A stretch of 64,000 nucleotides of DNA from Closterium sp. NIES-65 (Eukaryota > Streptophyta > Zygnematophyceae > Desmidiales > Closteriaceae). Numbering within the stretch: the stretch's first letter is position 1; every line of letters starts with the position of its first letter. The DNA lies in NCBI GenBank assembly GCA_948144175.1, contig CANXME010001453.1, forward strand, positions 3,596,001 through 3,660,000. The letters are read 5' to 3'. This document shows positions 4,963 through 30,300 of this stretch, in pieces. The notes beneath the pieces were generated by a model. That model did not search any database. It was not told where the DNA came from and was given only the letters and a program-made list of their open reading frames with translations. The position numbers were made by a program, and so were the translations under genes.

Positions 4963-7900
4963 CTTGGTATTCAGAGCCTACGATCTCATCTCGGACCGCA
5001 TCCACACCTTCGCTTCCCACTATCTCAATTTTTTGGGGGGGGTAGACGTCTCTCAGCGACACAGCACCGCCGCTCGTAGTGCTCTCTCGAAAGCACGCAC
5101 GGCCACGACCGAGGCTCTTGCTGAGCTTGCCCGACACCCCCGCCATGGCCGATTTCAATCTCGCCACGTTGACGCAGGAGCAACTCGATCGTCTCGTGCG
5201 TCAATTGGAGGATTCGGCGCTCGAAATCGCGACTCTCACGGCGGAACGTGACTCCGCCCGTCAACAGTCAACGGTGAACGTACCGACGACATCACACGCA
5301 CCAACCAATGCATCTGCACATTCGGAGGAGCCCATCGTCATCTCATCCGGCACACCAACGCAACACAACAGCACGGGACAGCGCTCAGGCGCAGCCAGTG
5401 ACGGCGCAGCCCAACCGATGCCCGGCATGGGAGGGAACAGGAGCGCATTAAGCCCACGGGAGCCCCGAGAAGCCCGTCGGCACGTGGAGTTTGCGGCGAC
5501 AAGTGGCGAGAACGCCATGATGGCCCCAATGCCACTCAAGCCGCAACGCCCGCCCTGCTTCGACCCAAGCCAACGCGGCGGCCCGACAGTTCAATCGTGG
5601 GTCTTCACGATGAATGTGTTTTTCGACGCCAACTACGTCGAGTCGGACGCCGTCAAGATCCGGTATGCGGTTTCACTACTCAGGGGCCCCGCCATGGACT
5701 GGTGGCGAGTCATTGTGACGTCGCCGCGCGCCTACGAGCCACCGTCGCACGAGGAAGGGCCCTCGGGTCCAGCTGTTACCTGGAGTTCGTTCTGCGAGAC
5801 CGCCCAATACAGCACGTGGGATGCGTGGTGCGCAGGGCTTCGGGCGCGCTTTGAGCCGATCGCGGCCTCGATTTTGGCGCGTCAGAAACTGCGCACTTGG
5901 CGCCAGCTCGGGTCAGTTCAAGACTACACCAGCGGGTTTCTCGCACTTTGCGAACAGGTCGGCTACATGCACGAGGCGGAGCGGGTGGACCGTTACGTCG
6001 GAGGGCTGAAGCCGGACATCTCGCACGAGATAATGCTACGCGGGCTCTCGAATTTCAACGAGATCCTCGCGCTCGCCGAGAAAATCGATATCCTACGCCG
6101 ACCGAGACCGGGGTCCTATTACGGACATCGTCCTCGGGGACCGACCGAGCACGCCACTGTACATGCCGTCGCAGCGAATGCAGCTGCCGCGCCGTTTAGA
6201 GGGCGCTGCTTTGCTTGCAACCGGCCGGGCCATCGCAAGAGCGAATGTCCAGAGGAGCTGAGGCGTCGAGGAGCAGAGCAGGGGAGGGAGTCTCGGAGGC
6301 AGGGAAACGCCAGCAGTCAGTAGAAGTTGGGCCAACTACTGACGAGACTGCCTGCTCGCCCAACCACACCGACCCTCACCGAGTCACAGTACCGATTCAC
6401 GCCATCGATCGGGCTCGGATGAATAAGGAGGGTACAGCGACGGATTGCCCGGTACTGATCTACGGGAAAATACAGGGAGCAGCAGTGAAGATCTTCATTG
6501 ACGGAGGAGCAAGCCACAACTTAGTTAATACCGCAACCGCACAAAAATTACAGTTAACGCTTAACCGATGTTTACCTGAGATAGATGCACGCTTAGTCGA
6601 CGGCACGCCCCTGGCCATACGGGAAAAGGTGGAGCGCGTAAAAGTCTGCTGCGGGGGGAACTTCGGGTTTACACAGGAAATGCTCGCGACGACACTGGAT
6701 GGGCACGACATTTTATTGGGACGTGATTGGCTGCGACGGTACAACCCACGGATCGACTGGACGACGGGGAGTTAATGACGACGCCACGCGTATTAATTAC
6801 GCAGTTTCGCTTCTTCGAGGTGCAGCGCTTGAGTGGTGGCGCCGAACCTTGGAAACAGGGACGCCGACAGGTGTGACACATGCGGCAGACGGGACCTCTA
6901 CAGCGACTAATCAAGTGGCAACGTCGATCTTCGGGGTGACCACGATACGCACGTGGAAGGAGTGGGGCGCAGCCTTACGAGGTCGCCTCGAGCACGTATC
7001 CGCCTCGGAGCAAGCTCGCATGAAGCTGCGTGCATGGTCGCAGATGGCTTCTGTCCAAGACTACACGGCGTCATTAATGAGCCTCGCCGACCAAGTCGAT
7101 GACATGTCGGAAGCTGAACGGCTGGATAAATACATCAGCGGCCTCAAATACGAGATACAGTACGAGGTTCGCAGGGGCCGTCCGACGTCATTTCTTGCAG
7201 CAGTACAGTTGGCGGAGTCCACAGATGCGCTGATGTAGTACGCGAGAGCAGCTTCCCGGGAGGGAAACCGTTTTCGTGGCCAGACCCATCGGACCACGAT
7301 CAACGCCGTCCATACACCCGACCGCCCTCCTAAGGGACCGTGTTTCCGGTGTGGGAAGACGGGTCACTACATCAAAGATTGCCACGAGAAAACGCCACTG
7401 ACGGGGAACGACAGGAAGGAGCAGGGAAATGGGAAGAGTCAGTAATTAGCGGGCCCTTTACTGACTGTGCTCCGTCGCCCGAACCCCACCATCCCCACCG
7501 AGTCGTGGTTCCGATTCATGCAATCGATCGCACTCGGCCGAATAACGGGGATAATCACGTGGATCACCCTGTGCTGGTCGCTGGTAAGGTGTTAAAAAAT
7601 AACCTGAAAATGTTCGTCGATGGAGGGGCCAGTCATAGCCTCTTCGATTTGGCGAGCGCAAAAAAATGCAAGCTGCAACTTGACAGGTGTCTGCCCGAAG
7701 TCGACGCTCGCCTCGTGGACGGGACGCCTCTGGCGATAACGGAAGAAACACGGACGGTCAGGATCGAATGCGGCGACAATTTCGGCTTCAGCATGAAGTT
7801 CCTCGCGACAACATTGGACGGCTGCGACGTACTGCTGGGACGCGATTGGCTGCGACGGCACAACCCCGTCATCGACTGGACAACGGGGACGTGCAGCATC

Positions 7901-8873
7901 AACAAGCACGAGGGGCTAATTAAGCTCCCTACATGGACCCCTGACTACATCCAAGCCCCGTGCGTCAAAGCCATCACTATAGCTCGCCACTTCAACAGGG
8001 GCGCGCAGCTGTTCGCCGTTTGTTTACGCGAGTTGGCAGTCGACCCCGAAGGAAAAGACATCGAGAAGCTGTGTGCAGCTGTACCCCCGGATTTAGCGGA
8101 GCTGATTCGGAGGTACCAGGAAATCTTCCCCGACGATCTGCCACCTGGACTGCCACCGGAGAGACCTCAGAACCACAAAATCAAGCTAGAACCTGGAGCG
8201 CAACCAACCATTCGGACACAGTGGCGGTTGACCCAGCCGGAACTCGAGGAGCTGCGACGACAAATCGACGCACTGTTAGAAAAAGGGCTCATTCGGGCCA
8301 GCACATCTCCTTTCGCAGCACCGATTCTGTTCACTCCGAAGAAAGACGGCGGGCTTCGCATGTGTATCGACTATCGCGCGCTGAACAGGGTCACCATCAA
8401 GTCTCGCTACCCAATCCCACGAGCCGACGACCTCCTCGACCAACTTCGTGGCGCTCGCTATTTCTCGAAAATTGACTTACGTGGCGGTTACCATCAAATT
8501 CGAGTCTTCGCCGACGATTGTCACAAGACTGCGTTTCGTACACGCTACGGGAGTTACGAATTCACAGTGATGCCTTTCGGCCTCACGAACGCGCCCTCAA
8601 CTTTTTAACTGACCATGAACAGGGTTTTTCGGGATCTTCTAGACCGGTGCGTTATCGTCTACTTAGACGATATCCTCATTTTTAGCAAGACAAGGGAGCA
8701 GCACCTCCGTGACCTGGACGCAGTGTTTAAGCGGCTGCAGGAGAACCAACTCATCACCAAGGGCTCTAAGTGCGAGTTTTTTAAGCAGGAGTTGGAGTTT
8801 TTGGGGCACGTCATCTCGCGCGACGGCATTAAAATCGACCCGGCAAAAATCAAGACCATACAGGAGTGGAAGT

Positions 8874-16254: not shown

Positions 16255-18329
16255 GAAGTCCTCGACGAACGTCACGGAGCTCCAGAGTTTCCTCGGAATC
16301 GTAAATTACGTCCGGAGGTTTATCCCGAATATGGCGGGGATAACCGGCCCGCTGACCGACCTGCTGCACAAGGACAAGAATTTTGTGTGGGGGGAGGAGG
16401 CAGAAGCGGCGTTCCAGGAACTCAAGAATTTTCTCGTGTCCCCTCCTGTGCTGCGCATCGCCGACCCATCGAATCCGTTCGAAGTTGTAACCGACGCCTC
16501 AGATTTCGCCATCGGAGCTGTACTCCTCCAAGATTTCGGGAACGGGTTGCAGCCGATAGCCTACGAATCACGCAAGCTGCAGGCAGCCGAACGCAACTAC
16601 CCGATCCACGACAAGGAGATGCTCGCCATTATACACGCATTTAAACTATGGCGATGCTACGTGGTGGGCCCGACGTCACTGTTCGCACGGACCACAAATC
16701 CCTACAGTACCTGCGAGCCCAACCCAACCTCAACCCACGACAGATTCGATGGCTCGACTACATGGAGAGCCATTTCACCTACCGCATCACGTACAAAAAA
16801 GGGGCTAATAACATCGCCGACGCCCTGACCCGACCGACAGTACAATCCGCTGCAGTACTCATCACCCACTCGAACCCGCTACTTACCGGACTATTCACCC
16901 ACGGCTACACGACAGACCCCTTCTTCACAACGGGAAACCATCAGCAGACTACGACGCAGAAAGGGGACTATTACCTAAAAGCCGGAACCGACCGGATTTG
17001 GGTTCCCGCTTACCGTCTGCTGCGTGAGCTTCTCATCCAGGAGATACATGATTCAAACCTCATCGGACATTTCGGGGTCGATAAGACACAGAAACTACTG
17101 CACCGTCACTATTACTGGCCTGATTCCTCTAACGACGTGCAGCGCTATATGTCCTCATGCAGGGTGTGCCAAGCAATGAAGTCGACACGTCAGCGACCAG
17201 CTGGATTGCTGCTACCCCTCGAGCCACCCGAACGACCGTGGCAACAAGTGACGATGGATTTTGTCACGGGGATGCCAGCTGGGCCGACAGGCAACGATGC
17301 TGTTCTCGTCGTCGTCGACCGCTTCACGAAAATGGCGCACTTCGCACCATGCAGAACGACAATCACAGCCGAAGAAACTGCGCGACTTTTCATATCGACG
17401 GTCGTGCGACTGCACGGCATCCCTTCAGCGATCATCAGCGACCGCGACCCAAAATTCACATCCAAATTCTGGAAGGAGACATGGGCGCAATACGGCACGA
17501 AGCTACAGTTCTCATCGGCTTACCACCCGTAAACCGACGGTCAAACAGAGCGGACCAACCAGACCATGGAGCAGTTAATCAGGAGAAACTGCCCCGATCC
17601 TGCCCGCTGGGAAGACTCGCTCGCAATGCTGGAATTCGCTTTCAACAACGCACCATCCAGCACGACTAATCACTCCCCATTCTTCCTGAATTATGGGATG
17701 GACCCGGCGGTTCCGACGACAACTACACTCGACAATCCGGTCCCGCGTTCCCAGACTTTCGTGACGGAACTCCAGGAAGTCCGCGAAAAAGCCGCCGACG
17801 CAATTCGCAAAGCGAATATTACTTCCCGCAAATACACCAACCTTCTTCGCCGGGAACTCGTTTTGACTACTGGGCAATTAGTCCTCCTCGACACGAAAAA
17901 CCTGAACCTGCTCGGCCCTGCGAAACTTCGGCCACGATTTTGCAGACCGTTCAAAATCCTCAAGATGGTGACACCTGTCACCGCGAAGCTGTTGCTACCC
18001 GACGATTGGCGTATACATGACGCGTTCCACATCAGCCTTCTTCGGAAGTTCGTGCCTACCACGACCGACATCGCACGTCAGCAAGCGGCCCCGACAGCTC
18101 GCCCCGTCCCGGAGCCAACACTTGACCCTTCCAAGATTCTCGCTCATCGAATCCGCCTTGACGCCGCTGGACGCCACGTGGATTTCTTAATTCGCTGGAC
18201 CGACCGCACCAGTGAGGACGACACGAAGGTGCAATCCGCTTCAATGGACGCCTCGACACTTGTTGGTGATTATCTGGCGCGACGGCGTGTTTCGGCCATT
18301 GACTACCTTTCTTAAAGGGGGGGGGGTGG

Positions 18330-23478: not shown

Positions 23479-26400
23479 CTAAAGCTCCCTGACCGTGAGA
23501 TTTAGTCTGCCCGGTCGGAGCCCGGTCACCTGAATCAACCAATCAGGCGCCGTGCCGCCATGCACACATGGCACGCCATGGAACATCAGCCGAGACGGGC
23601 CCCCAAACACCACCACATCCCCTGATTCTAACACCACCCTCGCTGCTTTCTCCGGGTCTCTTTGCCACCCGAATAGGAAATCCGCCGCATCTCCCACGGA
23701 GAAAGAGACGACTGGCGCCCCCCGGCGGATTGAAGCGGGCGGCTCGTCCTTGTCCTGATGCATGCCTAGGGCTCCGCGCCGGGGAGAGTAAAAATTTGCG
23801 ATGCAGACTGAGGGTGTCATGTCTGGGAGAATGTTTTTGTTGCTGCTGCCCGAGGTGGCTCGGGCAGCCGTTTGGGCAGCAGAGACGGCTTGTACGGCAA
23901 GGGAAGAGATGGAGGGGGGAAGAGCGGGAGGTTCGGCGTCATCTACATAGGTTCGGCGGGGCTGGTAGGTTCGGAGATTTGGCTCCCAGTGCTGCTGCCC
24001 AAGACACATCATGTGAAGTTTCATCTGCCCGCCGTTGAGGAATTTCGGGCGATAAAATCCTCCCGGTCCCAGGCCAAGGCGACGGCACTCCTTCACAATG
24101 TCAATCTGCAGGAAGGGTTAGTACACTCAAAAGAAAGGGTTACACCAGGTTTTAGAGTCTCAAGGCAAGTTCAGTATAGTCAATCAAGAGGATAAGCTTC
24201 ACAAGAATAACAAGGTTGACAGGTCATGACAGGCAGCAGGAAACATAAGGAAAATGACACGTGGATTAATGAAACGTGGAATCAGCCACTAATTTACCTG
24301 CTGCTCCCTTGTAAGCCATCCCTTAAGCAACACCACCCCATCCTGCAACACTCCCCCTCTCCCCCCATCAATCCCAGCTTTCACCCCCCTCCCTCCCCTC
24401 ACCCCCCCCACTCCTCTCAGCAACCCTCCCTGCTGGTCCATCTGCACACAGATGTCAAACCTCCCATCCACGTCAGCTTCATCGTCTGCCAGGTCAGCAA
24501 GCCCTGCCAGGTCAGCAGGGATACCACACGGGCCATCCCTATCTCGATTCTCCCGAGAATCCAATCCCCCTCCTGCCGCCCCTCTCCCAATCCCTCCCCT
24601 ACCCCCCCCTTCACCTACTGATACCCCTCTATACCCCACTCCGTGACTCCCCATCCCACCTCCTCTCGAACCCCTCTCCTTATCAATCCTTCTGTTCCCG
24701 CCCCACCCACTCCTCCCCCCCACCTCCTCCTCTATCTCTCTCATTGCTTCCATCAGTGGGGAGTCATGCTGAAGCCTCGCCATGCCCTCCTTATAAGCAC
24801 CTCTCCTTCTGTCACTCTCCTGTTCCTTCCCATGGTGCTGCTCCTGCTGCCCCTTCTTCCCCTTGCTCCCCTTCTTGCCCTGCCCAGTAGCATCAGTTGT
24901 ACTAGCACCACCAGCACCAGCACCACCAGCACCAGCACCATTGGTACTGCTATTAGTACTGCTTGGTTTAACAAACACCGGAGCTGCAATTGGAAGGTTT
25001 GGGCTCGGCATGAGCTGGGTTCGGCCCGAACCACCCGCTGCCGAACCTCCCCCTCCGCCACCTTCCCCCTTTATAAGCACTTTTATCCCTGAAACCACTT
25101 CCTGCTTCACTGTAGGGATCTGCTCCCTCTCTCCTTGCTCCTTGTCTCCTTGGCCTCCTTGACCTCTCATCAGGAAGATACTGCCTACACCAGTTCTACC
25201 TCCCCCTGGTTTCCCGTTCGCCCCCCTACTTGCACCCTTTGTCTGCTCCTCAGAACCTTCCTGCCCTGATTTGGCTCCCGCAGACCCTGCCGCGTCAGCT
25301 CCACCACCTGCCACGTCAGCCCCAGCGCTATCCGCCACGAGAACCCGTCGTCCAATCAGATCGAGCGTAACAACCACTCTCCTCCTCCTCTCCTCCTCCT
25401 CCCTCTCCCTCTCCTCCTCTCTCCTCCTCAAAATCTCCCTCTCCTCATTCGTCAGCCAAGCATCCCCATCCCCATCTGCCCCGTTGGATTTGAAATAATC
25501 ACTCTGATCGTCGATCACCACCGTCCGTTGGGCCGACGTACGATTATACTCCACCAGTCTATCCCTAAACGCTAGAGCCTTCGCCTCAGCTTCCGTTGTC
25601 CCTGTTGCTGCTCCTCCCACTCCTCCCACCTCATCCCATTCCTCCCATTCCCCCTCCATTCCCACCCCTGGAGCCGCATCCCCCATACTATCAGACCCTC
25701 TAAGCACCAAAAAGCCGCAGAACTTACACGGCCCTTCGCCCTCCTGCTCGCACACGATCTTGCCACACGCTAAGCAGTTGTTAACTAAGTGATGGATGGC
25801 CGCCTGGCACTCGCACGGCGCGCCTTGCTTAAACACCCGCCCTTGCTCTAGATCCGCCAACCCCACCGCCAATCCGCCCCTCCGCTTCCTTCCGCCCGCG
25901 GATTTCCCCCCGCTCGCGCTTCCTCCTGCCCCTCCGCCAACCCCTCCGCCAGTCCTTCCGCCAACCTTTCCGCCAGCAGCACCGCTCGCTGCCGCACCTT
26001 CCGGAGCCCCCGCGCCCCCTGCGCTTCCCCCTTCCCCCAACCCTCCCCCTGCGCCGGTCCTGCGCGAGGGCGCGGAGACAGATCCGGAAGCTTCGTCGAA
26101 CTTGGGCTTCACGTAGACCTCGATGTTAGGGTTCTCGTGACTGTATTTGGTGTGACTATAATCCTGCGCTTGTTGTTGTTGCTGCTGCTGCTGCTGCTGC
26201 CGGTGCTGCTGCTTTCCTCGAGCGTTTCGCGGAGGATTTTGCGGCGGCTGAGACGGCGAGCCGCCCTGCTTCATCTGACGTCTTCGTTCCAGATACCCGG
26301 AAACTACGGCCATGGACTGATCCGATTCGCCGACGATATTTGAAAGATACTCTGCCACGTCAGCATCGGAGGCATTAGGGCAGTAGCTGACTAAGCCTGA

Positions 26401-26496
26401 CACCATGTCAGAATCCAGGAACGGCAGCGCGTCGCGCATCGCTAGGAGCTGATTCTGCAGCCATGCCTCCGGCGCCGCGGATGCTGACGTGGCCAT
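23479..26496 (-). CDS. TRIP4/ASC-1 zinc-finger protein fused to a plant ALKBH1-type AlkB dioxygenase
   Basis: Two exons, 26496-24298 and 24105-23479 (intron 192 bp, CAG|GTAAAT ... CTGCAG), phase 0, 941 aa. Residues 1-75 match the TRIP4/ASC-1 N-terminal domain (LVSYCPNASDADVAEYL). Residues about 226-262 are the C2HC5 zinc finger (CECQAAIHHLVNNCLACGK, then VCEQEGEGPCKFCG). Residues about 300-390 hold the following TRIP4 block (LVEYNRTSAQRTVVIDDQSD, WLTNEEREIL). The same uninterrupted exon then enters the plant AlkB N-terminus (GRFDIC at about 677; DGVVLLKGWLTREQQ). Exon 2 completes it with GGFYRP, MHQDKDE (Fe-binding H and D), FHGV (distal His) and RPGRLNLTVR (2-oxoglutarate Arg). The expected activity is Fe(II)/2-oxoglutarate oxidative demethylation of nucleic acid, tethered to the ASCC complex. 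The ASCH domain of animal TRIP4 is absent. Poly-Gln and Gly-rich linkers separate the domains. The joining is read directly from the sequence; function is inferred. Confidence 0.88.
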
Positions 26497-27309: not shown

Positions 27310-30300
27310 TCACTCGCACGCCACTTTGGTATCAAAGCTGCTCAGGCAGATGGCAAACGCCTGGACATGTGATGCATGCAGGCACACACAGACACACCAC
27401 GGGGAAAGCACCCATATCGTGGGGACACACACACATGACATGAGAGATGTAGAGATGAGGTGAACTGCAGAGATGTGATATGAAGCAAGGAAGCAACGGC
27501 AAAAGGAAAACGCATCTGATCTGGGTACGCACAGAGAGAACATGGGAGAGGAGAGACTGGGAAAAGAATGTCAACACAATACCTGAGAACTCACCCGAGA
27601 AACTACCCACCTGAGAAACTACCCACCTGAGAAACTACCCACCTGAGAAACTACCCACCTGGGAAACTACCCACCTGAGAAACTACCCACCTGGAAGCTT
27701 GTGCATGGGCATCTGTAATCCATGGTGAGTGTATCCTTACCTAACCTTTCCTAAGTGCAGCAACACTGGCTATCAATACCTGAAAGCACACACTTTCATT
27801 CAGATAGAAGCACCCACCTGGAACGCTGTAAGAGGGTATCTGTAATCCATGGTGAACGTATCTTTCCCGATCTTGCCAAACTGCAGCAACACCGGCTTAT
27901 CAGAGTCGTTGCCCGGCCCGCCTCCTTCTATCAGCTGGAAATTCTTCACCGAAGCGACTGTGACTCGCCCTCGGAAGTTAAGGCACCAACACTGGCAGTG
28001 TGGGAGGGGGAGGGCAGGCAAGGGGAGGCAAGGGGAGCGGGGGCATGGAAGTTCAAGCACCAGCACTGGGAGCGGGGGAGTGGAGGTAAGCGGAGACAAG
28101 CGGGGATGAGGTCCGGCTTGTCCAAGTCGTTCCCTGGCCCGCCCCCTCTATGAGCTGGAAGTTCCTCACTGAAGCTACTGTCACTCGCCCACGGAAGTTG
28201 AGGCACCAACACTGCAAGTGAGTACGGGAAAGAGGAGGCGGGTAGGGGGTGGGAAAGGGGGAAGCAGCACCGGCTTGTCAGAGTCGTTCCCCGGCCCGCC
28301 CCCCTCTATGAGGTGGAAGTTCTTCACTGAAGCCACTGTCACTCGCCCCCTGAAGTTCAAGCACCAGCACTGGCAGTGTGGGAGGGGGAGGGCAGGCAAG
28401 GGGAGGCAAGGGCGGGATGAGAAGGGGGCTTGTCCGAGTCGTTCCCCGCCCCCCCCCCCCCCTCTATCAGCTGGAATTTTTTCACAGAAGCACCCCCGTC
28501 ACTCGCCCCTTGAAGTTGAGGCACCAGCACTGGAAGCGTGTATGGGATGGACAGGAAAAGGGGATGCAAGGGAGGATTGGAAGGGCCTTATCTGAGATGC
28601 TCCCCGGCCCGCCCCCCTCTATCAGCTGGAAGTTGTTCACCGAAGCAACCGTTACTCGCCCTCTGAAGTTGAGGCACTAGCACTGGAAGGCGAGGAGGGG
28701 AGGCGAGGGGAGGGGAGGGAGCGCTCGGCCCAATGTTTCATGACAGACTTCGCTTTCTAATCTGTAATTGCCTTCCTCAATACACACACCTGCAGCTGCG
28801 CGTGCCACCGGGGAGGCTTGTTCCTCGATACCACAGTCTCTAGGGGCGCTCGGCCCATGATAGAAAGCTTTACATTGCCCTATACCCCCTTATACTCCCT
28901 TATACTCCTTTGCACTCCTCCATATCCCCTTGTATCCCCTCACCTGCAGCTGCTCGTGCCATCTGCGAGACTTGTTCCGCAACACCATGGGCTCCAGAGG
29001 CGCTCGGCCTCATACTCCCTTGAACTACCCTGTACTCCCGTGCACCGCTTCCCACCCCCCAGCACCCACACACATACCTGTAGCTGCTCGTGCCATCTGG
29101 GAGGCTTGTTCTGTAACACCATGGGCTCTAAAGGGCGCTCGGCTTCATCTATTTCCATACTAACACCACTTAATACTCCCCTGTACTGCTGTGCACCGCT
29201 CCTCATTCCCCAATAAACACACATACCTGCAGCTGCTCGTGCCACCGGGGAGGCTTGTTCCTCAGCACCATGGGCTCTAGGGGCGCTCGGCCACCTTGTA
29301 CTCCTGTGCACCGCTTCCCACCCCCCAGCACCCACACACATACCTGCAGCTGCTCGTGCCATCTGGGTGGCTTGTTCCGCAACACCATGGGCTCTAGAGG
29401 CGCTCGGCCGATGCACCGCACACAGTCACACTCCGTACAGTCACCCTCCAAATCCCCCTCTGCATCTGCCTCTGCATTGAAAGCAGGAGGCGCAGCAGCA
29501 GGGGAAGGAGCAGCAGAAGCAGAAGGAGCAGCAGGAAGGGCGGCAGGAGACGGGGCAGACGAAGCAGCAAATGGGGGAGTCGCAGCTGCAGCAGGGAGAG
29601 AGGAAGGGGTGAATGGGGGAGTCAAGGGACCCGAGGGGAGAGAGGAGGAGGCGAATGGGGGAGTGACAGCCGCCGCAGCTCTGGCACCTGCTGCTGCTGC
29701 TTCTGGTGAAGCCACAGCTCTTGCTGCTGCTGCTTCTGACCATGCCGTTCTGCTTGCTGTTGCTGCTGATGCTGCTGCTGCTGCTGCTGTTAGTGCCGCT
29801 TCTAGTTCCAATGTGGGCAAGGGCAGGGGCAGGGGCAGGGGCAGGGGCAGGGGCAGGGGCAAGGGCAGGGCGGCAGGGGGAAGCTCAAGGGCAGCGGGGG
29901 GGAGGAAGGGGTCTGCGGAGACGGGAAAGGGGGAGATATGCACGTCTTCGCTGCTGCTTTCCTGGAAACCTCCGCCTTGCAACCAGCCCTGCTGCTGGCC
30001 CGCCTGCTCACTCCTCCTCTCTCCACTGCTCTCCTGCTGCTCACACGCACCGTCTGTCCGCCAATGCCCACACCCCTCCTGCCGATTCCCCTCCTCTAAA
30101 CTCCCGTCCTCTGGACTGCTTTCCTCTTGATTCCTCTTCTCCCACCTGCCCTCTGCTTGACTTCCTTCTTCCCGACCGCTCTGCTGCTCATCACTCTCCT
30201 TTCCACTGCGCCCCACCACTCCGTTTCCTGCGCTCATCTCTTCCCCACTCTCTGGGAACGAGACCAAGGGCTCTCTTGTGCAGATTGTGGGTGGAGACCT

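What the first reader, a model, noticed from the sequence alone, without database searches (positions are those of the whole stretch)
23479..26496. Natural fusion of TRIP4/ASC-1 with an AlkB dioxygenase
Seen directly: one uninterrupted 2.2-kb exon carries the TRIP4 N-terminal domain, the C2HC5 zinc finger and the N-terminal part of a plant ALKBH1-type domain (GRFDIC, VVLLKGWLTREQQ). A clean phase-0 intron joins it to the catalytic part with MHQDKDE, FHGV and RPGRLNLTVR. Known: human TRIP4 is a subunit of ASCC, which works with ALKBH3 in alkylation-damage repair. Inference: the fusion hard-wires a demethylase to the ASCC scaffold, replacing the ASCH domain, and suggests a plant-lineage ASCC-AlkB repair or RNA-surveillance unit. 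I do not recall this domain pair being described.
Basis: partly seen in the sequence, partly recalled or inferred. Interest (0 to 1): 0.9.

Follow-up and report, generated by a model that had tools for sequence, protein, structure and literature searches.

The report
Ancient ASC-1 and AlkB gene fusion
A green alga makes one protein that joins a helicase-docking adaptor (ASC-1/TRIP4) to an enzyme of the AlkB family that strips methyl groups from nucleic acids; the same joined gene occurs from green algae to conifers, while the flowering plants seen here carry the two halves as separate genes.

Summary
The fusion is real. In a Closterium sp. genome (proteins 99-100% identical to Closterium sp. 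NIES-65) one two-exon gene, 23479-26496 on the minus strand, encodes 941 aa: TRIP4/ASC-1 N-terminal region, C2HC5 zinc finger and TRIP4 third domain, then a complete AlkB 2OG-Fe(II) dioxygenase where human TRIP4 has its ASCH domain. It is not a local oddity: 33 of 242 proteins returned by three searches carry both halves (chlorophytes, zygnematophytes, liverworts, mosses, a clubmoss, a fern, gymnosperms). The only TRIP4_3rd matches in this genome are this gene on two near-identical contigs; no ASCH match was found. Trees favour the fused form as ancestral in green plants, with flowering plants carrying it split into stand-alone TRIP4 and 'ALKBH1B/C/D'; AU tests do not exclude another root (p about 0.3). 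One premise needs correcting: in human cells TRIP4 and ALKBH3 bind ASCC3 mutually exclusively, so the fusion unites two normally alternative partners. Proposed mechanism (inferred): the zinc finger docks on ASCC3 and the tethered AlkB works on the threaded strand. One passing mention (Ginkgo, 2026) was found in print. Weak points: no RNA reads for the junction, ASCC3 not tested here, 4 of 7 deposited Closterium models lack AlkB.

The parts
23479..26496 (-). whole coding region of the TRIP4-AlkB fusion gene (two exons, 941 aa)
24298..26496 (-). exon 1: TRIP4 part, linker and first 54 residues of the AlkB module
   Evidence: open frame, ATG to CAG|GTAAAT
24106..24297 (-). phase-0 intron, 192 nt, 41% GC, GTAAAT...TACTAACCCTTCCTGCAG
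   Evidence: identical on the second contig
23479..24105 (-). exon 2: catalytic part of the AlkB dioxygenase, ending TAG
   Evidence: 2OG-FeII_Oxy_2 E 7e-41
26287..26496 (-). N-terminal TRIP4 region (residues 1-70)
   Evidence: by its homologues, not tested on the window itself: their profile aligns with human TRIP4 from residue 26 and a moss homologue is modelled with four confident helices here
25702..25818 (-). C2HC5 double zinc finger, all eight ligands present
   Evidence: ligand list from PMC10076317
25339..25509 (-). TRIP4 third domain (VIDDQSDYF...LIGRRVLV)
   Evidence: PF23134 E 2e-15
24745..24777 (-). conserved motif RLQHDSPLMEA; its R-x-Q aligns, weakly, with human residues 425-427 at the lasso/ASCH boundary
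24298..24459 (-). start of the AlkB module (FDIC ... VVLLKGWLTREQQ)
23752..23760 (-). HQD, the HxD iron ligands
23578..23580 (-). third iron ligand, His of FHGV
23488..23508 (-). RLNLTVR, the conserved R-x5-R motif (role of the arginines recalled from E. coli AlkB)

Best explanation
The gene encodes one polypeptide: an ASC-1/TRIP4 (yeast Rqt4)-type adaptor that carries, instead of an ASCH domain, an AlkB dioxygenase with intact catalytic motifs. Shown here: the architecture, the zinc and iron ligands, its wide occurrence in green plants, and that it is the only TRIP4_3rd match of this genome. Inferred: the double zinc finger docks on the C-terminal cassette of the ASCC3 helicase, and a flexible linker holds AlkB near the place where human TRIP4 puts its ASCH domain beside the exiting strand, so that RNA (or DNA) drawn through ASCC3, for instance at ribosomes stalled on methylated mRNA, is demethylated at 1-methyladenine or 3-methylcytosine by the same complex. 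The fused gene is probably the ancestral green-plant form; in the seed-plant line it was duplicated, one copy lost AlkB (stand-alone TRIP4) and the other let its TRIP4 part diverge (gymnosperms) and lost it (flowering plants, ALKBH1B/C/D).
For: Architecture and motifs. Fusion in 33 of 242 returned proteins. A transcript-style EukProt record (P0024) and nine unnamed contigs of 2.1-3.1 kb holding whole or nearly whole fused reading frames. One profile of 13 green-plant proteins matches human TRIP4 residues 26-427, yeast RQT4 and rice OsALKBH1. Fold of homologues. Genome: TRIP4_3rd only at this gene on two contigs, no ASCH match. Human ZnF docking, lasso, ASCH near the presumed exit: PMC10076317 passages. 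Trees: stand-alone and gymnosperm fused AlkB rows of seed plants group at 100/100 and 100/98 with bacterial root; 13 of 14 stand-alone TRIP4 rows form one clade (100/98) and gymnosperm fused TRIP4 halves sit on a branch of 1.44.
Against: No RNA reads of this strain; 4 of 7 Closterium models lack AlkB. AU tests do not reject a tree with all 27 fused AlkB rows as one clade against stand-alone and bacterial rows (p 0.32; 0.28 with Acidobacteriota only), nor one clade of all 11 stand-alone AlkB rows (p 0.34). In the bacterial-rooted tree the chlorophyte rows branch first but with weak support (90/77, 87/67). In one human system ASC-1 had no effect on ribosome disassembly, and ALKBH3 is said not to influence stalling (PMC7447978, passage). 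The 8 fused proteins of the chlorophyte group lack the full eight-ligand pattern, so docking may differ there. Of three human ZnF residues mutated in PMC10076317 (L174, L180, I190; effect not seen by me) L174 is Q here. ASCC3 of this genome was not tested (search unanswered). Activity and substrate are not measured.
Confidence: 0.55

Rival explanations
1. The locus makes two products by regulated splicing: a TRIP4-only protein when the intron is kept (stop after two intron codons) and the fusion when it is removed. The fusion would be a minor or conditional form.
For: Deposited models of three Closterium strains end two residues into the intron (P0003, P0006, P0007); seed plants have a TRIP4-only gene.
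Against: The intron has GT, TACTAAC and CAG signals; P0005 reads across the junction; the AlkB half is kept in the fused proteins of the other lineages listed; automatic gene models often stop wrongly (general knowledge).
Confidence: 0.15
2. The fusion is real, but the AlkB half works apart from ASCC3, for example as a general mRNA, tRNA or DNA demethylase that uses the TRIP4 part only for localisation or stability.
For: Flowering plants have separate AlkB-half and TRIP4 genes; gymnosperm fused copies have a fast-evolving TRIP4 half; the chlorophyte group lacks the full zinc pattern.
Against: The eight zinc ligands are kept in 23 of 34 fused proteins including the window's; the joint architecture is found from chlorophytes to gymnosperms.
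Confidence: 0.25
3. Assembly or gene-model artefact: two neighbouring genes read as one.
For: Some automatic models of this locus do merge neighbours: P0001-P0004 also carry the Tub domain of the upstream gene.
Against: Exon 1 itself runs from TRIP4 into the AlkB module without a break; two contigs agree; fused proteins from many lineages, some on transcript-sized contigs.
Confidence: 0.02

Closest known systems
Human TRIP4 / ASC-1 (PDB 8alz)
   Same: N-terminal region, double zinc finger, third domain: profile match of 13 green-plant proteins over human residues 26-427; the window itself matches the finger and third domain
   Different: The human protein goes on into an ASCH domain at 425-578; here a linker and an AlkB domain follow, and no ASCH match was found in the genome
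Yeast Rqt4 (PDB 7zpq, chain CC)
   Same: Matches the green-plant profile at E 3e-11, best stretch in its TRIP4 part (positions 88-260)
   Different: Its match lies in the TRIP4 part; of two stretches only the best was listed, and no AlkB domain is reported for it
Rice 'OsALKBH1' of PDB 5xeg/5xoi and the plant ALKBH1B/C/D group
   Same: Closest solved structure to the AlkB half: E 3.5e-63, TM to target 0.94 for a moss homologue; rice-type and ALKBH1C/1D-like named proteins group with gymnosperm fused forms
   Different: The flowering-plant proteins listed lack the TRIP4 half. The rice gene tested as a DNA 6mA demethylase is LOC_Os03g60190 (PMC10469495, passages), which I take to be another gene
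Ginkgo GbALKBH1B
   Same: One sentence in PMC13296198 notes a zf-C2HC5 domain beside the AlkB domain (passage)
   Different: The passage does not link it to TRIP4 or ASCC; 'trip4' occurs 0 times in its main text
Human ALKBH3-ASCC3 complex
   Same: Pairs an AlkB enzyme with the ASCC3 helicase
   Different: Separate proteins; ALKBH3 and TRIP4 exclude each other on ASCC3 (PMC10076317, passages)

Membership tests
ASC-1/TRIP4/Rqt4 adaptor | C2HC5 double zinc finger with ligands spaced as in human C171/C173/H178/C184/C187/C192/C200/C203 | tested here: met
   window CECQAAIHHLVNNCLACGKIVCEQEGEGPCKFC
ASC-1/TRIP4/Rqt4 adaptor | TRIP4 third domain (PF23134) | tested here: met
   57.4 bits against cut-off 27.7
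ASC-1/TRIP4/Rqt4 adaptor | C-terminal ASCH domain (animal form) | tested here: not met
   no ASCH match in the gene, the genome (exon by exon) or 55 green-plant proteins; so an ASC-1-type adaptor without ASCH
ASC-1/TRIP4/Rqt4 adaptor | binding to ASCC3 | not testable with these tools
   needs biochemistry; the search for the helicase family PF02889 in this genome stayed unanswered (last tries)
AlkB 2OG-Fe(II) dioxygenase | 2OG-FeII_Oxy_2 domain | tested here: met
   141.1 bits against cut-off 31.2
AlkB 2OG-Fe(II) dioxygenase | HxD...H iron triad and R-x5-R motif | tested here: met
   HQD, FHGV, RLNLTVR
AlkB 2OG-Fe(II) dioxygenase | AlkB fold | tested here: met
   on homologues P0012 and P0009, not on the window protein: TM to 5xoi 0.93 and 0.94
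AlkB 2OG-Fe(II) dioxygenase | oxidative demethylation activity | not testable with these tools
   no assay
Mammalian ALKBH1 | closer to ALKBH1 than to other AlkB folds | tested here: not met
   TM to target 0.34-0.49 against 0.77-0.86 for AlkB (moss homologue); sequence E 1e-9 against 8e-18 (window exon 2)

The most novel reading that the evidence does not exclude
Green plants inherited a one-protein ASCC3 adaptor-demethylase: AlkB sits where animals put ASCH, so the ASCC3 motor feeds stalled, alkylated RNA straight into a repair enzyme. Flowering-plant ALKBH1B/C/D and TRIP4 are the two split halves of that protein, which predicts that they still act together on methylation-stalled ribosomes.
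Probability: 0.35. Interest if true: 0.85.

Novelty: new variant of a known kind. Interest (0 to 1): 0.62.

Why it matters
Domain fusions often show which proteins work together. Here nature joins counterparts of two factors that compete for the same helicase in human cells, and keeps them joined over much of green-plant history. That gives a direct, testable link between AlkB repair and the ribosome-rescue helicase, suggests a function for the plant ALKBH1B/C/D enzymes, and offers mosses and Marchantia as laboratory systems in which the joined gene can be edited to test it.

Tried and rejected
Considered and rejected: (a) two neighbouring genes or an assembly join: exon 1 is open from TRIP4 into the AlkB module and two contigs agree. 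(b) A fusion peculiar to Closterium: found in many lineages. (c) A three-part Tub-TRIP4-AlkB protein, as some deposited models suggest (P0001-P0004): in P0003 the Tub profile runs to its last position (256/256) at residue 796, and the window has an in-frame stop after [16 protein letters not shown] at 27310, some 0.8 kb before the TRIP4 ATG; I read the merge as a gene-model error, not proven. (d) That the flowering-plant members are the published rice 6mA demethylase: that gene is LOC_Os03g60190, which another paper lists as ALKBH1A, apart from ALKBH1B/C/D. (e) An internal promoter: the scan tool covers bacterial promoters only and says nothing here.

Searches for a description in print: TRIP4+AlkB+plant+fusion (1 paper), ALKBH+C2HC5, zf-C2HC5+2OG-FeII, ALKBH1+zf-C2HC5, TRIP4+Arabidopsis+ASCC3+ALKBH, AlkB+TRIP4+domain architecture, AlkB+activating signal cointegrator+Arabidopsis. 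Of these hits I looked inside PMC13296198 and PMC7447978 only (passages). The library holds open-licence papers only.

Led nowhere: the ASCC3 search (PF02889) did not complete; the first structure model (8 rows) was poor outside AlkB.

Limits of counts: searches list 120 of 436 and 120 of 544 hits; searches scored only the 7978 and 7995 candidates sharing most words. Trees used 27 of 34 fused sequences (left out: P0001, P0002, P0014, P0019, P0025, P0028, P0034), 14 of 95 TRIP4-only, 11 of 114 without the TRIP4 motif, 18 of 76 bacterial loci. The motif counts use regular expressions, so odd copies can be misfiled. P0032 and P0034 are two records of one Edaphochlamys gene name; P0033 is unnamed and is called chlorophyte by its place in the trees.

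Full report
What is there. The minus strand of 23479-26496 holds one two-exon gene. Exon 1 (24298-26496) is open from ATG to CAG|GTAAAT; the 192-nt phase-0 intron ends TACTAACCCTTCCTGCAG; exon 2 (23479-24105) ends in TAG; the product has 941 residues. Pfam finds zf-C2HC5 (E 4e-10) and TRIP4_3rd (E 2e-15) in exon 1 and 2OG-FeII_Oxy_2 (E 7e-41) in exon 2. The AlkB module begins inside exon 1 (FDIC...VVLLKGWLTREQQ), so the two halves are joined within one exon, not only by splicing.

Where it comes from. Deposited proteins of Closterium sp. NIES-65 (P0003, P0004) are 100% and 99% identical over 72% of the searched part, residues 215-941. The window is G000:C1450:3596001-3660000 of an 874-Mb assembly in 2400 contigs. 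A second contig (C697) has the same gene: over 3122 aligned columns, 4 mismatches and 3 gap columns, all in exon 1. TRIP4_3rd matches only these two places in the genome; the zinc-finger family PF06221 was asked twice and not answered. ASCH has no match (a search exon by exon, so a split domain could be missed). Of 8 matches to 2OG-FeII_Oxy_2 only these two cover positions 17-194 of the family; the other six are shorter.

How far it reaches. Three protein searches returned 242 distinct proteins: 33 with both motif sets, 95 with the TRIP4 motif only, 114 without it. Named fused proteins come from Closterium, a Mesen-labelled record (Mesotaenium, name expanded from memory), Ceratodon, Sphagnum, Riccia, Marchantia, Calypogeia, Diphasiastrum, Ceratopteris, Cryptomeria, Taxus, Haematococcus, Volvox, Astrephomene, Edaphochlamys, Dunaliella and Gonium. 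No named flowering plant among the listed hits was fused (the lists are capped). P0024 bears a transcript-assembly style name, and nine unnamed fused proteins sit on contigs of 2141-3094 bases, about the size of the reading frame, which I take as cDNA (inference). One passing mention was found in print: GbALKBH1B of Ginkgo carries zf-C2HC5 (PMC13296198, passage).

Anatomy against known structures. One profile of 13 green-plant proteins matches human TRIP4 8alz over residues 26-427 (E 2e-52), yeast RQT4 7zpq (E 3e-11) and rice OsALKBH1 5xeg (E 1e-91). In human TRIP4 the lasso peptide is 375-424 and ASCH 425-578 (PMC10076317, passages), so the homology ends where ASCH starts; the last aligned residues are weakly aligned. 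The window has all eight zinc ligands; 23 of 34 fused proteins (window included) keep the full pattern, as do 95 of 95 TRIP4-only proteins; the 11 without it are 8 of the chlorophyte group, P0002, P0023 and P0025. The HxD...H triad and the R-x5-R motif are present in the window (P0014 and P0025 miss one or more of these by the pattern, P0014 being cut short). A model of the Ceratodon homologue (55 rows, mean pLDDT 67.5) has a confident N-terminal helical domain, a moderate zinc finger, a disordered middle and a confident AlkB domain whose best PDB match is 5xoi (TM to target 0.94), then AlkB (0.77-0.86), then ALKBH1 (0.34-0.49) and ALKBH3 (about 0.55).

History. AlkB-half tree of 38 rows, rooted on chlorophytes: zygnematophyte fused, then land plants; seed-plant stand-alone and gymnosperm fused forms together at 100/100. 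With 18 bacterial rows as root the same grouping holds (100/98); the chlorophyte fused rows branch first, with weak support (90/77, 87/67) and long-branch warnings. The six best bacterial matches are Acidobacteriota. TRIP4-half tree of 41 rows: 13 of 14 stand-alone forms in one seed-plant clade (100/98), the Selaginella one unplaced; gymnosperm fused halves on a branch of 1.44. Cryptomeria has a fused protein (P0029), a TRIP4-only protein (P0067) and an AlkB-only protein (P0216). The plainest reading is an ancestral fusion, duplication in the seed-plant line and loss of one half in each copy. Against it, AU tests do not reject all fused AlkB rows as one clade (p 0.32; 0.28 with Acidobacteriota alone as outgroup) nor all stand-alone AlkB rows as one clade (p 0.34). 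Fission is therefore the preferred, not the proven, history.

How it probably works. In human ASCC3-TRIP4 the zinc finger alone gives stable docking, the lasso and ASCH lie on the C-terminal cassette near the presumed strand exit, and TRIP4 and ALKBH3 exclude each other; TRIP4 knockout did not change MMS survival (PMC10076317, passages). A protein that keeps the zinc finger and carries AlkB in the place of ASCH would put the demethylase at the exit of the motor and end that competition. Substrates m1A/m3C are inferred from bacterial AlkB (structure titles; activity recalled). Whether the task is ribosome rescue on alkylated mRNA, DNA repair or both is open. ASC-1 had no effect on ribosome disassembly in one human system (PMC7447978, passage), which speaks for caution.

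Correction of names. The rice gene studied as 6mA demethylase is LOC_Os03g60190, while LOC_Os11g29690 is listed as OsALKBH1A there and as ALKBH1B elsewhere (PMC11779730, passages). That 5xeg is the Os11g gene, and which of At3g14140, At3g14160 or At5g01780 P0197 is, I did not check. Papers seen: PMC13296198, PMC10076317, PMC11779730, PMC10469495, PMC8118384 and PMC7447978 in passages; all others in search listings only.

Noticed in passing
27310 to about 34078 (-): Neighbouring upstream gene with a Tub (tubby-like) domain and a weak F-box match below Pfam's cut-off, same strand. Four Closterium records (P0001-P0004) carry Tub together with TRIP4 domains; I read this as merged gene models.
   Followed up: partly
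5046-8605 and 16645-18312 (+): Retrotransposon pieces, Ty3/Gypsy-like by their domains: gag with zinc knuckle, aspartyl protease, reverse transcriptase, integrase, Tf2-1-like SH3.
   Followed up: no
24289-24297 (-): Deposited models of three Closterium strains end two residues into the fusion gene's intron (...EQQVN, VM, VI), so a TRIP4-only isoform by intron retention is conceivable.
   Followed up: partly
related proteins P0027, P0029, P0127, P0132: Gymnosperm fused copies have a fast-evolving TRIP4 half (branch 1.44) beside a conserved AlkB half.
   Followed up: yes
related proteins P0015, P0030-P0036: Fused proteins of the chlorophyte group keep NCxxCG and C-T-[FY]-C but lack the full eight-ligand C2HC5 pattern.
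   Followed up: partly
G000, e.g. C1450 and C697: 6 of 8 AlkB-family matches come in near-equal pairs on different contigs, as in an assembly that keeps both haplotypes or duplicates.
   Followed up: partly
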